Assembly: GCA_937883785.1 (NCBI GenBank) | Contig: CALGDE010000050.1 | Span: forward strand, 1-45,592 | Reading direction: 5' to 3' | Source: an uncultured cyanobacterium | Lineage (GTDB): Bacteria > Cyanobacteriota > Cyanobacteriia > CACIAM-69d | DNA: 45,592 bases | Shown: one piece after another, positions 35,826 to 45,403 of the stretch | How the letters are laid out: every line of letters starts with the position of its first letter | How positions within the stretch are numbered: position 1 is the first letter of the stretch | Notes under the pieces: generated by a model | Databases searched by the model: none | The model's input: only the letters and a program-made list of their open reading frames with translations | What the model was told of the DNA's origin: nothing | Position numbers and translations under genes: made by a program

Positions 35826-36105
35826 GATTCAACTGCTTGTGATTCAAGCCTTATTTCTTCTTGATGAATACACTGTAGCCTGTTCAGGCGCTTAGGGCAA
35901 GATTTTTGTTGACAAGAACTTTTCAAGGGCGTAATCGTATAAGCCCGTCTTCAATCGACTTCTTTTTAGACATTTGAATGCTTTTCTGAGAAAGGCGTCT
36001 ATTTTATTCAGTGTGTTTTTGTCCATAGATTAGTTAAGAAGGCGATATCGTTCAGCTTCAGGATGACAGCATGTGTGAAAGCCTTAGCCCGAGATTGAGA
36101 GAGTG

Positions 36106-38802
36106 ATGGACCATTTGTCAGGTGAAATGTCGGAGGCGATCGCTCCGGGACAGCACGAAGAAGCGCAGGCAGAGTATTGGAATGGCTTGCGTCAGGAGCT
36201 GAAGCGCTATAAAGATGAGTTTGGAGCCACAAATATTGAGCTATCCCAGGGATTAAGGATCAGCCGCCAACCCCTTGTGTCTTTTATGCAGGGACAGCGA
36301 GAAGACTTGCCCATTCAGCGAATTAACTTGATGTACCTATGGGATGATCTGACATCTGAAGAAAAAAACAGATCAAAGCGACTATCCCAGGTCAAACGTG
36401 ACAAGCGACGGATGCTGGGAATCGAAGACCGCAATCAGCTGCTAAGGGTGGCTGGTTTTTTTGTCAGCGACAATAAAGGGCTAGATATTAATGTCGAACG
36501 CTATCAACATATTCAGCGTTTGGTTTCAGGGTTATCCCATCTTCATGCTAGCGATGATGGAAGCTTTATCAATATTGTTACTGCTCTCGAAAGAGAATTA
36601 ATTTCTGAAGCCTTCGGTCCCCACTCCGTGTCTAATCATGCTGACCATGCCCGAAATGTCCGCAGATTCTTTCACGATATGCCTGTTCGCGAAATAGAAG
36701 AGTGGATAAATGATTGGTCATCGAAATATTTAGCCATTCCGCCAACGTCTGTTATCCAGAAGAAATTTAATCAAGCGATTTCGAGAATTATACGACGAGG
36801 GAAAGGTCAGATAGAAAACAAAGAGATTTTTGAGTTATATTTATCTATCCTTGAGAACAGCAGAATTAGCGATAACTCACCCTATAGACATAAGGTTACC
36901 CATTGTCAATTTTCGGATATTAGTTTCTCAATCTCTAGTTTGGAGCTTTGCAAGAGCACAGATTTAAGGGATGAACTTAATCAAGTTTTTCTTGCCGCTG
37001 AAGAGACCTTACGGTATTCGTCTAGGTGTATAAAAACCATCTTTTCTGATGAGAATGGTCAACAAAAGTATTTGGGAAGTTGCTTGTCTGAAAGGGAAGG
37101 CGACGACAGAAGATACTATCTACAAAATTGTGTTTCTGAGTACGTTGTTGAAACATCTATAGTGTGCTCTTTGGAGGAACGTAAATCATCAAAAAGAGAA
37201 AATCTAAAACACATTAAATGGTCATATAGTTCTTCTGACACCCATTATCAGAATATGTTTACAGCGATTTATCGAGGGATGGGCTGTGCTGATAGTTTGG
37301 AACTCATTGACTTTTCAACGATTAGTCTAGGAAACGAAACGAATAGTTTGGTTAAGTCGTCTACTAGCTTCAAGCGAGATAAAAAGCTGTATCAGGGAGT
37401 TTGGGTAGAGGAAAGTGCAATTCTTGGTACGGCTAAATCTGTGCTCGCGTCGATTAAAAACTGGCTAGTTGATTACTTTAATGCTCCTAATAGCCAAGAT
37501 CAGAAAGTTGCTTACTATGATTTTTATTTTGTTTGTCAGAAAGTTGCACAAATAGATGAGGAATTAGACCATGCTTCTGAAAAAGTAGGTCAGTATGCAT
37601 TTAAATATGGTAATTCAGACTTTGGAGAAACAAACCCAGCAGGGCTGTCAGAAATTATTTTAAGAATTAACAATATCAAAAATGGTATAAGTTCTTGCTC
37701 AATTCCTAGTGCTTTGGGCAATTGGTATCAAATTCATCTCGAAAAACAGGAGTGTCGTGCCCTATTGAAAAGCGCTCGCTCTTGTTTTGTTGGGGGACAA
37801 CTAAAGCAAGCAAAAGACTATTTAGATAAAGTTTTTGGGAAGTTAGATGATCCAAAAGTTTCTGTCGATAAAACTATTGGACTGCAATTAGAATACGAGA
37901 AAAATTTATACCTTTGTTATTCGGGTGATCGCGATTTTATAGGAAGAAGACGGTGGCGAGAAAGCGCTGACCTTCGCTTTCAAGAGCTCAGGAATCACAT
38001 TTACAGTTGCAACGCCTTAAACGAGCCTAAGCAGTCAGGGCGCGGTCTTTTTGACAAGCAAACATACCAGTGTGCAGCGTCAATATTTGCTCGTTTGGGA
38101 CGTTTAGAATGTACTTTCGCAACCTCTGTGGAACAGGATTGCTTAGAGAAAGGAGCGGAGTACCTTTTGATGGCAGCATATTGCGTTTCTAAGTTGGGAA
38201 AACGTTCACGCACTGCGCATTACTTAGCAAATGTAAGCCGTATTTATTGTCGCTTGGGAGATGGTGAACGTGCCGAAGCGTTATCGAAATTAGCTAAGTC
38301 TATTCTAGAAAAGATGGAGATGCATTCTTACAATGAACACTACAAACGTTCAGCTTTTGCAGAAATTGAGATTAGTCTTGGGGAAAAGGAATTACTGCTG
38401 GATAAGCAACCAGAGAAGAGCCTGGAACGTTTTGGAAAATGTCTGGCGGGGGCTGCTTATTTAGGATTTGTTAGGCTTCTAGCAGATTCCTTATACGATA
38501 TTTCTCGTGCAGCAAAAGATATTGATGCGCCTTTGAAACCAGAGCTATTGTATGTGAGCCGCTGGAACGATAGTGATCGCCCTCAGTCCAATCCTATTGT
38601 TCTTGACGTCATGGAACAGCTCGAAGCATTTGTTCAAAACAGTTGTACTTGGGCGGAAGCTGCGCCCTTTTTAAGGGAACAAGCCAAGGGGATTTGGGAC
38701 CGATGGGCAAAGGACGTTAGTGGTAATGAGAAGGTAAGGCATCCTTTAGCCATTGATATGGAGAATGGGCAGTATCTTTGCTGTGTAAAGGATGCTTTTT
38801 AA
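36106..38802 (+). CDS. Large HTH plus helical-repeat protein of unknown function
   Basis: An 898-residue protein (ATG at 36106; a GTG lies at 36103). Residues about 25-70 look like a lambda-repressor-type helix-turn-helix: WNGLRQELKRYKDEFG, then TNIELSQGLRISRQPLVSFM. The middle (about 110-590) matches nothing I know. The C-terminal third has TPR-like helix pairs: ARSCFVGGQLKQAKDYLDKV, TAHYLANVSRIYCRLGDG and EKSLERFGKCLAGAAYLG. No membrane segment. It is more AT-rich than the flanking genes, which suggests transfer. The layout recalls regulators that sense a ligand or protein through a helical array, but function is unknown. It converges with the pentapeptide gene. Confidence 0.85.
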   Translation: MDHLSGEMSEAIAPGQHEEAQAEYWNGLRQELKRYKDEFGATNIELSQGLRISRQPLVSFMQGQREDLPIQRINLMYLWDDLTSEEKNRSKRLSQVKRDKRRMLGIEDRNQLLRVAGFFVSDNKGLDINVERYQHIQRLVSGLSHLHASDDGSFINIVTALERELISEAFGPHSVSNHADHARNVRRFFHDMPVREIEEWINDWSSKYLAIPPTSVIQKKFNQAISRIIRRGKGQIENKEIFELYLSILENSRISDNSPYRHKVTHCQFSDISFSISSLELCKSTDLRDELNQVFLAAEETLRYSSRCIKTIFSDENGQQKYLGSCLSEREGDDRRYYLQNCVSEYVVETSIVCSLEERKSSKRENLKHIKWSYSSSDTHYQNMFTAIYRGMGCADSLELIDFSTISLGNETNSLVKSSTSFKRDKKLYQGVWVEESAILGTAKSVLASIKNWLVDYFNAPNSQDQKVAYYDFYFVCQKVAQIDEELDHASEKVGQYAFKYGNSDFGETNPAGLSEIILRINNIKNGISSCSIPSALGNWYQIHLEKQECRALLKSARSCFVGGQLKQAKDYLDKVFGKLDDPKVSVDKTIGLQLEYEKNLYLCYSGDRDFIGRRRWRESADLRFQELRNHIYSCNALNEPKQSGRGLFDKQTYQCAASIFARLGRLECTFATSVEQDCLEKGAEYLLMAAYCVSKLGKRSRTAHYLANVSRIYCRLGDGERAEALSKLAKSILEKMEMHSYNEHYKRSAFAEIEISLGEKELLLDKQPEKSLERFGKCLAGAAYLGFVRLLADSLYDISRAAKDIDAPLKPELLYVSRWNDSDRPQSNPIVLDVMEQLEAFVQNSCTWAEAAPFLREQAKGIWDRWAKDVSGNEKVRHPLAIDMENGQYLCCVKDAF

Positions 38803-42931: not shown

Positions 42932-44002
42932 ATGACTCCCGTGATCGCCCCAAAGATCGCTTCGAAATCGGCTTCCTCTACAACAGCGCCGGTTGATCCA
43001 ATCGTATCGATTCCAAAATTTCAACCCTTCACAAACCTACAAGATCCCAGTCATCTCGCCAACGTCACCATCATTGGATCTGGAGCGTGGGGATCGGCTT
43101 TGGCAACGTTAGCCAGACAAAACGATCATCAAGTTCATATGTGGTCTCGCCGCAATGACGAGTCCCTTGAAGATGCCGTTAGCGGTGCCGACATTATTGT
43201 TTCTGCTGTTTCCATGAAGGGTGTGGCTCCCACCATTGCCAAATTAAAAGCCATGGGACTGCCCGCCAGCACCATCATCGTGACTGCCACAAAGGGACTT
43301 GATCCCGAAACCACCAAAACCCCGTCTCAAATGTGGCAGGAAGGGTTTCCATCTCTGCCTGTGGTGGTGTTGTCTGGTCCCAACCTTTCCAAGGAAATTG
43401 AAAAGGGCTTGCCAGCGGCGACGGTGGTGGCAAGCACCCACTTAGACGCGGCGGAGGCAACCCAGGTGGTGTTTGCTTCTGAGGTGTTGCGAGTGTACGT
43501 GAACCCGGATCCCATTGGCACCGAGCTGGGGGGAACCCTTAAAAATGTTATGGCGATCGCCGCTGGAGTTTGCGATGGGCTTAGCCTCGGCACCAATGCG
43601 CGATCCGCATTGCTAACCCGAGCTTTACCGGAAATGATTCGTGTGGGCACCCAGCTTGGCGCTCAGCCGGAAACCTTTGTGGGTCTGGCAGGGCTCGGCG
43701 ATTTATTGGCTACCTGCAGCAGCCCCCTTTCTCGCAACTATCGCGTAGGGTTTGGCCTATCCCAGGGCAAAGCCTTGGAAGATATTTTAGACGAGCTGAA
43801 GAGTACGGCGGAGGGGGTCAACACTGCCAATGTGTTAATGGAACTGGCACGCCGGGAAAAAATCCCCATGCCCATTGCCCGCCAGGTATATCGTCTGCTT
43901 CACGGCAAAATCACCCCGGAAGAGGCGGTTCAAGCCCTTATGGATCGTGAGCTTAAGCAAGAGTTTGAGGACGAGCTGCTTCAGGCTAACGACGAAGCCT
44001 AG
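42932..44002 (+). CDS. gpsA: Glycerol-3-phosphate dehydrogenase (NAD(P)+)
   Basis: A 356-residue enzyme that reduces dihydroxyacetone phosphate to sn-glycerol-3-phosphate, the backbone for membrane lipids. The NAD(P) motif GSGAWGSALATLA starts near residue 49 after an N-terminal extension of about 44 residues rich in Ser and Pro. The catalytic Lys204 is in GGTLKNVMAIAAGVCDG. VVLSGPNLSKEIEKGLPAA and the substrate loop GLAGLGDLLATCSSPLSRNYRVG are conserved. The extension is not obviously a transit or signal peptide, so a later start cannot be excluded. A hairpin follows the stop. Confidence 0.95.
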   Translation: MTPVIAPKIASKSASSTTAPVDPIVSIPKFQPFTNLQDPSHLANVTIIGSGAWGSALATLARQNDHQVHMWSRRNDESLEDAVSGADIIVSAVSMKGVAPTIAKLKAMGLPASTIIVTATKGLDPETTKTPSQMWQEGFPSLPVVVLSGPNLSKEIEKGLPAATVVASTHLDAAEATQVVFASEVLRVYVNPDPIGTELGGTLKNVMAIAAGVCDGLSLGTNARSALLTRALPEMIRVGTQLGAQPETFVGLAGLGDLLATCSSPLSRNYRVGFGLSQGKALEDILDELKSTAEGVNTANVLMELARREKIPMPIARQVYRLLHGKITPEEAVQALMDRELKQEFEDELLQANDEA

Positions 44003-44349: not shown

Positions 44350-44397
44350 AGCGGAACCATCAGCCTCAAAAGAAGGGCAGGCTTAGATGGTTCCGCT
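44350..44397. terminator. Long bipartite hairpin downstream of rpmJ
   Basis: AGCGGAACCATC (44350-44361) pairs with GATGGTTCCGCT (44386-44397), and an inner AGCCT/AGGCT stem (44362-44366, 44379-44383) extends it to 17 pairs with a two-base bulge. CTTT follows on the plus strand. It sits between convergent genes and probably serves as a two-way terminator. Confidence 0.75.
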
Positions 44398-44449: not shown

Positions 44450-44962
44450 CTAATTAAAGGGCTGCTCAATGACCTTCACCGGTGGCGAGCAGAATACGCA
44501 AAGCTCATTCGCTATTTCGACGGCTTCCTGGGGTGATTTATCCAGGTACATCGCCGTTAGGGAGAAATGCTCCCCCGCTCCAATAGCGCTGAATTCATTG
44601 ATTTTATCGATTAAATATCCGTCGGCTACTCGGAACACTTCATTGCCAAAGCCGATTAGGTATTCACTACGATGGGCGAAGCTACTGTCTTTACCGCTTG
44701 CCCAGCTATAGAACTCAACAATAAAGTCCAAAAATGCCTCCGTATTTGCCGCCTTGGGCTTATGGGTGCGGGCAAAGATTCGCATAAAGCTAAGCTCCAT
44801 GCTGAGTCCCACGCCGCCGATGACCATATCGTTCACTTCAAACAGCTTTGCCATATCCTGACCGGCAACCCGTTGGCTTTCTTTTAAGTAGCCAGACACC
44901 CGGATGCTGTCGGCTGCGAAGACCAGGCGATCAGGATATTTACGAACGGAAACAACGCTCAT
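44450..44962 (-). CDS. Small proteasome/HslV-like Ntn-hydrolase fold protein
   Basis: A 170-residue protein. The layout matches the proteasome-beta/HslV fold: strand MSVVSVRKYPDRLVFAADS, a second strand with the Lys segment DMAKLFEVNDMVIGGVG, and the late block FSAIGAGEHFSLTAMYLDKSP, then AVEIANELCVFCSPPVKVIE. After Met removal the chain begins with Ser, which could serve as the nucleophile in place of Thr1; Asp18 is then at position 17 as in HslV, and Lys39 stands in for Lys33. No HslU ATPase is adjacent. Activity is unproven; a non-proteolytic use is possible. It is about the same length as HslV. Confidence 0.7.
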   Translation of the reverse strand: MSVVSVRKYPDRLVFAADSIRVSGYLKESQRVAGQDMAKLFEVNDMVIGGVGLSMELSFMRIFARTHKPKAANTEAFLDFIVEFYSWASGKDSSFAHRSEYLIGFGNEVFRVADGYLIDKINEFSAIGAGEHFSLTAMYLDKSPQEAVEIANELCVFCSPPVKVIEQPFN

Positions 44963-45106: not shown

Positions 45107-45403
45107 TTATGCGAATTCCCAACTGCCGACGCTTACACTAGTTGCTCCTTGATCTTGCAGCAGACTCAGCAATTCTATGAACGCTGATACGGGCGCCGTT
45201 CCAAAATCAATGGAGAGTGATAAATATCCGTTTTCAAAGCAGGCATCCAACGAGTGAAGGAACCCAACCTCCGGACCTTGATTTGTATATTTCTCATCGA
45301 CATCGATAGCTTTTTCAAGCCAATCACGTAAGGGTGCTTCGTCTACTTCTTGTAAGTTAGTGCGAAGCTCAATTGCGTTCCAGATCATTGGCTCGACTGA
45401 CAC
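45107..45403 (-). CDS. Hypothetical protein with an unclear start
   Basis: A 98-residue chain from the GTG at 45403. The frame stays open without a stop up to 45538 and its upstream part reads like real protein (ITYYKGEAPQLVEVNLDQK), yet holds no ATG, GTG or TTG before the TAG at 45539-45541. So the gene either uses a rare start, has lost its start, or is frameshifted. The chain is acidic and soluble (LSLSIDFGTAPVSAFIELLSLL). I recognise no family. The last 190 bases of the window hold nothing else I can support. Confidence 0.55.
   Translation of the reverse strand: MSVEPMIWNAIELRTNLQEVDEAPLRDWLEKAIDVDEKYTNQGPEVGFLHSLDACFENGYLSLSIDFGTAPVSAFIELLSLLQDQGATSVSVGSWEFA

What the first reader, a model, noticed from the sequence alone, without database searches (positions are those of the whole stretch)
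44450..44962. Proteasome/HslV-like protein with a Ser at the nucleophile place and no HslU
The chain keeps the HslV-like strand order, Asp at mature position 17, a Lys in the right area and the late AIGAGEHF block, but starts M-S rather than M-T and stands alone. It may be a small self-compartmentalised hydrolase with a different job.
Basis: partly seen in the sequence, partly recalled or inferred. Interest (0 to 1): 0.55.

Follow-up and report, generated by a model that had tools for sequence, protein, structure and literature searches.

The report
Stand-alone cyanobacterial proteasome-like serine hydrolase
This gene makes a small protein built like one subunit of the proteasome or HslV protease, with serine instead of threonine at the catalytic end and no HslU motor in the genome; it almost certainly belongs to a family already named in 2021 whose job is still unknown.

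Summary
Window 44450-44962 (-) encodes a 170-aa protein that matches phage 'peptidase HslV family' (PHROG 1040, E 1.9e-15). Its AlphaFold model (pLDDT 83, pTM 0.81) matches BPH, HslV and proteasome beta (VIA Z 15-19); in most rows model residue 2 lies against chain residue 1. In 29 of 29 distinct intact cyanobacterial relatives Ser2, Asp18, Lys39 and Gly52 (equivalents of Thr1, Asp17, Lys33, Gly47) are invariant. None of 59 genomes, its own included, has HslU above the curated cut-off. So it is a stand-alone proteasome-like protein with a conserved Ser at the nucleophile place.

It is not new as a kind. Fuchs, Alva and Lupas (2021) described CPH (Cyanobacterial Proteasome Homolog), next to BPH; taxon, compact chain and lack of an AAA+ partner fit. 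Their reference sequence could not be fetched, so the filing rests on description. Ser1 has precedents (BPH outside Betaproteobacteria, CodW).

What I add: the proteasome's second relay (Ser129, Asp166, Ser169), which serves the N-terminal amine, is replaced by invariant Ala, Cys, Cys; the gene is patchy and sometimes broken. Best reading: an ATP-independent, probably ring-forming Ser1 hydrolase with a narrow substrate range. Activity, rings and substrate are not shown.

The parts
44450..44962 (-). CDS, 170 aa, stand-alone proteasome-like protein (most likely CPH), ATG at 44962-44960
44957..44959 (-). codon AGC, Ser2 = mature Ser1, nucleophile place
   Evidence: Ser in 29 of 29 distinct intact cyanobacterial proteins, codon AGC or AGT in all of them; residue 2 lies against chain residue 1 in most VIA rows
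44909..44911 (-). codon GAC, Asp18 = Asp17 of the proteasome
   Evidence: 29 of 29, and 17 of 17 more distant rows
44846..44848 (-). codon AAG, Lys39 = Lys33 of the proteasome (Lys37 of BPH)
   Evidence: 29 of 29; aligned with BPH KIIRVGD and HslV KVRRL
44807..44809 (-). codon GGA, Gly52 = oxyanion-hole Gly47
   Evidence: 29 of 29
44576..44578 (-). codon GCG, Ala129 at the place of proteasome Ser129 (BPH Ser139)
   Evidence: Ala in 29 of 29; in the 17 other rows Ser 12, Cys 3, Thr 1, Ala 1
44498..44500 (-). codon TGC, Cys155 at the place of proteasome Asp166
   Evidence: Cys in 29 of 29; 16 other rows with a letter: Asp 12, Cys 2 (E. coli HslV, L080), Asn 1, Ser 1; the equivalence rests on the alignment
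44489..44491 (-). codon TGC, Cys158 at the place of proteasome Ser169
   Evidence: Cys in 29 of 29; 16 other rows with a letter: Thr 10, Ser 2, Cys 3, Val 1; model pLDDT is under 50 at 156-159

Best explanation
The gene encodes a member of the proteasome superfamily, group I, of the kind named CPH. Shown by sequence and by a predicted fold: a compact Ntn alpha-beta-beta-alpha sandwich without room for a propeptide, with Ser1, Asp17, Lys33 and the oxyanion Gly in place, under purifying selection, and no HslU in the genome. Inferred: methionine aminopeptidase removes Met1 and exposes Ser1; Lys39 (Asp18 behind it) deprotonates the Ser hydroxyl; the Ser attacks an amide bond and the acyl-enzyme is hydrolysed. 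Because Ser129/Asp166/Ser169, which set the charge of the N-terminal amine in the proteasome, are Ala/Cys/Cys here, and because Ser1 is slower than Thr1 in yeast, I expect a slow or choosy enzyme rather than a bulk protease. Without propeptide or unfoldase it would work on peptides, disordered proteins or one dedicated substrate, probably inside a BPH-like ring. Its patchy presence and broken copies point to a dispensable, condition-bound task. Likelihoods: proteasome-like fold 0.98; CPH 0.9; live Ser1 hydrolase 0.65; ring 0.6; peptide-bond cleavage as main job 0.45.
For: homology and fold; 29 of 29 Ser2/Asp18/Lys39/Gly52; few sense codons before the ATG in many members, 1 here; no HslU; dN/dS; the 29 form one side of a branch, support 98/91; CPH; Ser1 in other members; BPH carries a live nucleophile; passages of PMC4792962: yeast beta5 T1S keeps over half of its activity on Suc-LLVY-AMC; role of Ser129 and Asp166.
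Against: No activity or assembly data exist for CPH in what I read. BPH, the best structural match, was inert on standard peptides and casein. D166A abolishes and D166N strongly lowers proteasome activity, so the changed second relay may mean a weak or dead enzyme; E. coli HslV, however, has Cys at that place in the same alignment. No neighbour hints at a substrate.
Confidence: 0.65

Rival explanations
1. Catalytically silent member: Ser1 and Lys/Asp are kept for structure or binding, and the protein acts as a scaffold or decoy ring, as alpha subunits do.
For: Second relay lost (Ala/Cys/Cys); BPH inert in assays; some copies broken.
Against: Ser2, Asp18, Lys39 and Gly52 all invariant in 29 of 29; a dead subunit would be expected to lose at least one. 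The start ATG sits directly before Ser in all 29.
Confidence: 0.2
2. Highly specific amidase or ligase (as connectase became), not a protease: Ser1 forms an acyl-enzyme with one partner and hands it to water or to an amine.
For: The superfamily holds such a case, connectase (abstract and results of PMC8665760); the altered environment of the N-terminal amine could slow hydrolysis (inference).
Against: No two-helix lid between strands 3 and 4 as in connectase: the model has E36-43 directly followed by E46-53. No conserved partner gene.
Confidence: 0.15
3. A true HslV that uses a distant HslU or another AAA+ motor such as ClpX.
For: Sequence and fold resemble HslV; AAA+ relatives of HslU are in every genome.
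Against: 0 of 59 genomes have HslU above the cut-off. BPH, which has no known motor, is the better match in profile and fold. The 2021 survey found no co-occurring AAA+ partner for the new homologues.
Confidence: 0.05
4. A phage gene captured by the host, possibly with a defence or counter-defence role.
For: Nearest named homologues outside cyanobacteria are in phages; a distant relative, L080, stands among short genes that look phage-like to me (labels not tested).
Against: No CPH-like protein in viral contigs with two queries; the window gene lies beside gpsA, L36 and ordinary cellular genes; in Calothrix-type genomes the flanks are shared.
Confidence: 0.08

Closest known systems
CPH, Cyanobacterial Proteasome Homolog (Fuchs, Alva, Lupas 2021, PMC8665760)
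   Same: Group I beside BPH, named for cyanobacteria, few members (27 at nr90 in the paper), compact subunit without C-terminal S12/H5, no propeptide, no AAA+ partner
   Different: Nothing known to differ. The reference WP_008185288 was not available here; the paper's Fig. 6 alignment is not held, so whether it shows Ser1 and Ala129 for CPH is unknown to me.
BPH (PDB 5ovs, 5ovt, 5ovu)
   Same: Best fold and profile match (Z 18.8; E 1.3e-6); no propeptide, no known motor; Ser1 in BPH outside Betaproteobacteria
   Different: About 18% identity; BPH keeps Ser139, here Ala129; BPH has a long acidic pore loop
HslV / CodW
   Same: Same fold, Z about 16-17; CodW of Bacillus subtilis also has Ser1
   Different: HslV works with HslU, absent here; no match by plain phmmer, which lists BPH only
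Phage 'peptidase HslV family' (PHROG 1040; AAH/PPH-like)
   Same: Shared late block AIGxGxxF, TAM, L-K, EAVEIA
   Different: Thr at position 2 in all twelve phage-type rows aligned; Ser, Thr or Cys, never Ala, at the Ser129 place in those rows

Membership tests
Proteasome superfamily (proteasome-like Ntn hydrolases) | Ntn beta-sandwich core with flanking helix pairs | tested here: met
Proteasome superfamily (proteasome-like Ntn hydrolases) | Thr1/Ser1, Asp17, Lys33 and oxyanion Gly47 | tested here: met
   29 of 29 intact relatives
Proteasome superfamily (proteasome-like Ntn hydrolases) | Free N-terminal nucleophile after processing | not testable with these tools
   Met-Ser start makes it likely (rule for methionine aminopeptidase, recalled)
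CPH | Cyanobacterial cluster within group I, near BPH | tested here: met
   All 29 intact members are in genomes of the window's class or in named cyanobacterial records; best structural match BPH
CPH | Compact subunit, no insertion and no S12/H5 at the C-terminus | tested here: met
   Model ends with strand 163-168; members 168-175 aa
CPH | Sequence similarity to the reference WP_008185288 | not tested
   Record not held in any collection reached here
HslV | Partner HslU encoded in the genome | tested here: not met
   0 of 59 above cut-off
HslV | Match to a curated NCBIfam model | tested here: not met
   No NCBIfam family at E up to 10
BPH | Ser139 hydrogen-bonded to Thr1 | tested here: not met
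   Ala129 in 29 of 29
BPH | Double heptameric ring with long acidic pore loop | not testable with these tools
   No multimer modelling
Anbu | Longer subunit with a long C-terminal helix H5 | tested here: not met
   170 aa, ends in a strand; Anbu chains of 233-236 residues

The most novel reading that the evidence does not exclude
CPH is a redox-tuned Ser1 hydrolase: the invariant Cys155/Cys158 pair, which by alignment sits where Asp166/Ser169 control the N-terminal amine in the proteasome, forms or breaks a disulfide or carries a modification, so that oxidation in photosynthetic cells switches the enzyme.
Probability: 0.1. Interest if true: 0.7.

Novelty: new member of a known kind. Interest (0 to 1): 0.36.

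Why it matters
Twenty-two proteasome-like families were named in 2021 without a function. This branch gives a clear test: an invariant Ser1 with the first triad intact and the second relay replaced. If active, it shows that the Ser129/Asp166/Ser169 relay is not needed once there is no propeptide to cut; if inactive, it asks why the first triad is still kept. It would also give cyanobacteria, here without HslVU, another stand-alone candidate protease.

Tried and rejected
HslV proper: rejected, no HslU and no NCBIfam hit. Anbu: rejected on length and end. A recent phage origin: two scans of viral contigs, with the protein and with its alignment, found no relative; a scan with the Microbacterium phage protein found three phage-type loci. 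Operon partner: gene clusters over 19 loci and the window showed only lineage-bound synteny (a divergent pentapeptide-repeat gene and a GDSL hydrolase gene in Calothrix-type loci, Pfam); ten neighbour ORFs of five loci, chosen by me, had no AAA+ domain. A possible link of the upstream ORF 45107-45403 to DUF3531 genes near two relatives was tested and dropped. BPH on plasmids: no match. Pfam PF00227 misses this family in its own genome, so it is no control for absence. VKOR and two other weak Pfam hits in 1 to 3 of 13 members (best E 0.032) were taken as chance.

Rows dropped before the 29-of-29 count: of 36 distinct proteins, four broken copies of the clade (L016, L017, L072, L079; all four still read Ser at position 2, with an ATT in place of the start in L017) and three of other branches (L025, L037, L038), which were counted among the 17 'others'. 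L064 (26-residue relic) was not looked at. L052, a phage row whose annotated start seems late, was left out.

Alignment caution: MAFFT put E. coli HslV's Lys33 off by a few columns (printed R at that column); one search places it correctly. One phage row (L046) seems misplaced there too.

Full report
What is there. The ORF at 44450-44962 on the minus strand is 170 codons, with ATG directly before Ser and one sense codon between the upstream stop and the ATG. To its left lie gpsA (42932-44002, named from recall) and a ribosomal protein L36 gene (Pfam L36), both on the plus strand; to its right a small minus-strand ORF without a Pfam family. It is single copy in its genome.

Family and fold. The protein has no Pfam or NCBIfam hit, but PHROG 1040 'peptidase HslV family' matches at 1.9e-15 and matches 13 of 13 members of alignment A1. 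phmmer against PDB gives BPH alone at 0.006; a profile of 12 rows, two of them phage rows, gives BPH 1.3e-6 and HslV from 9e-4. The AlphaFold model made from those 12 rows has pLDDT 83.2 and pTM 0.81; two of the five models were poor, with pLDDT under 40, and residues 22-33 and 156-159 of the best are under 50. Foldseek and VIA-align rank BPH first (E 1.4e-9; Z 18.8, rmsd 2.7 over 159 residues), then HslV and proteasome beta. In most of the 50 VIA rows the alignment begins with model residue 2, usually against chain residue 1; the rest begin at model residue 1 or, in one row, 3. So Ser2 sits at the Thr1 place.

Survey of relatives. Matches to the protein or to A1 were found in 6 of 59 related genomes, 7 of 386 of the phylum, 15 of 217 of one family, 21 of 388 of one order, 1 of 1 and 3 of 6; these sets overlap, and the counts include distant relatives (L025, L026, L080) and broken copies. 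A scan of genome contigs gave 11 loci, among them Okeania, Calothrix, Nostoc and Dulcicalothrix. After removal of duplicates and broken copies 29 intact proteins remain; all carry Ser2, Asp18, Lys39, Gly52, Ala129, Cys155 and Cys158. They are related sequences, not 29 independent events. Codon 2 is AGC or AGT in each. In the 17 other rows (phage, plasmid, E. coli HslV, and cyanobacterial L025, L080, L085) position 2 is Thr in 16 and Ser in L025. The 29 form one side of a branch (98/91), although the outgroup rows are long and their order is unsure.

Active site. By PMC4792962 (passages), Thr1-Lys33-Asp17 drives the attack, while Ser129 and Asp166, with Ser169, set the charge of the Thr1 amine; D166A blocks and D166N strongly lowers activity; beta5 T1S loses 40-45% on Suc-LLVY-AMC. 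In the present clade the first triad is whole and the second set reads Ala, Cys, Cys. L080, a Thr1 protein, already has Ala, Cys, Cys, so this change is not tied to Ser1. E. coli HslV has Cys at the Asp166 place but keeps Ser129, so Ala129 is the most unusual part. The two Cys equivalences rest on alignment in a stretch where the model is unsure.

Partner. None of 59 genomes passes the HslU cut-off; 5 of 14 control genomes do. The 2021 survey reports no AAA+ partner for the new homologues. In the regions compared no neighbour is shared between distant lineages.

What is known. PMC8665760 (abstract, results and discussion read; other parts as passages; figures not held) names CPH beside BPH, AAH and PPH, 27 sequences at nr90, function unknown. 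PMC5777263 (one section and passages) reports Ser1 in BPH outside Betaproteobacteria, CodW and one Anbu, and that BPH is inert on standard substrates yet binds epoxomicin through Thr1. Searches for papers on a cyanobacterial proteasome homologue or on its function found nothing further in the held library; subscription journals are mostly missing there.

Verdict. The Ser1 point is not new for the superfamily; the invariant Ala/Cys/Cys in place of the second relay is the part I did not see in the texts read, and it may stand in figures that I could not see.

Noticed in passing
L080:1234-1830 (genome G730): Distant relative with Thr1 but already Ala at the Ser129 place and Cys/Cys at the 166/169 places, among short genes that look phage-like; a possible link between phage-type and cyanobacterial forms.
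   Followed up: partly
L025:1462-2199 (genome G163): Distant cyanobacterial relative with Ser1 (codon TCA), Ser129 kept; beside a gene with a DndB/DNA-sulfur-modification domain (Pfam PF14072).
   Followed up: partly
L085:1180-1860 (genome G849): A BPH-like protein with Thr1 in a genome that also holds an intact member of the present family (L084).
   Followed up: partly
L016/L062, L017/L063, L072, L079, L064: Broken or remnant copies of the gene in several cyanobacterial genomes (frameshift, stop codons, truncation).
   Followed up: partly
window 44350-44397: A 12-base perfect inverted repeat (AGCGGAACCATC) between the convergent L36 gene and this gene, likely a shared terminator; its loop is too long for the terminator scan.
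   Followed up: no
window 36103-38802: 899-aa ORF with no Pfam family at E 0.01.
   Followed up: no
36 of 59 related genomes: Another PF00227 protein with an open frame of 247-309 aa, perhaps Anbu-like, absent from the window's genome.
   Followed up: no
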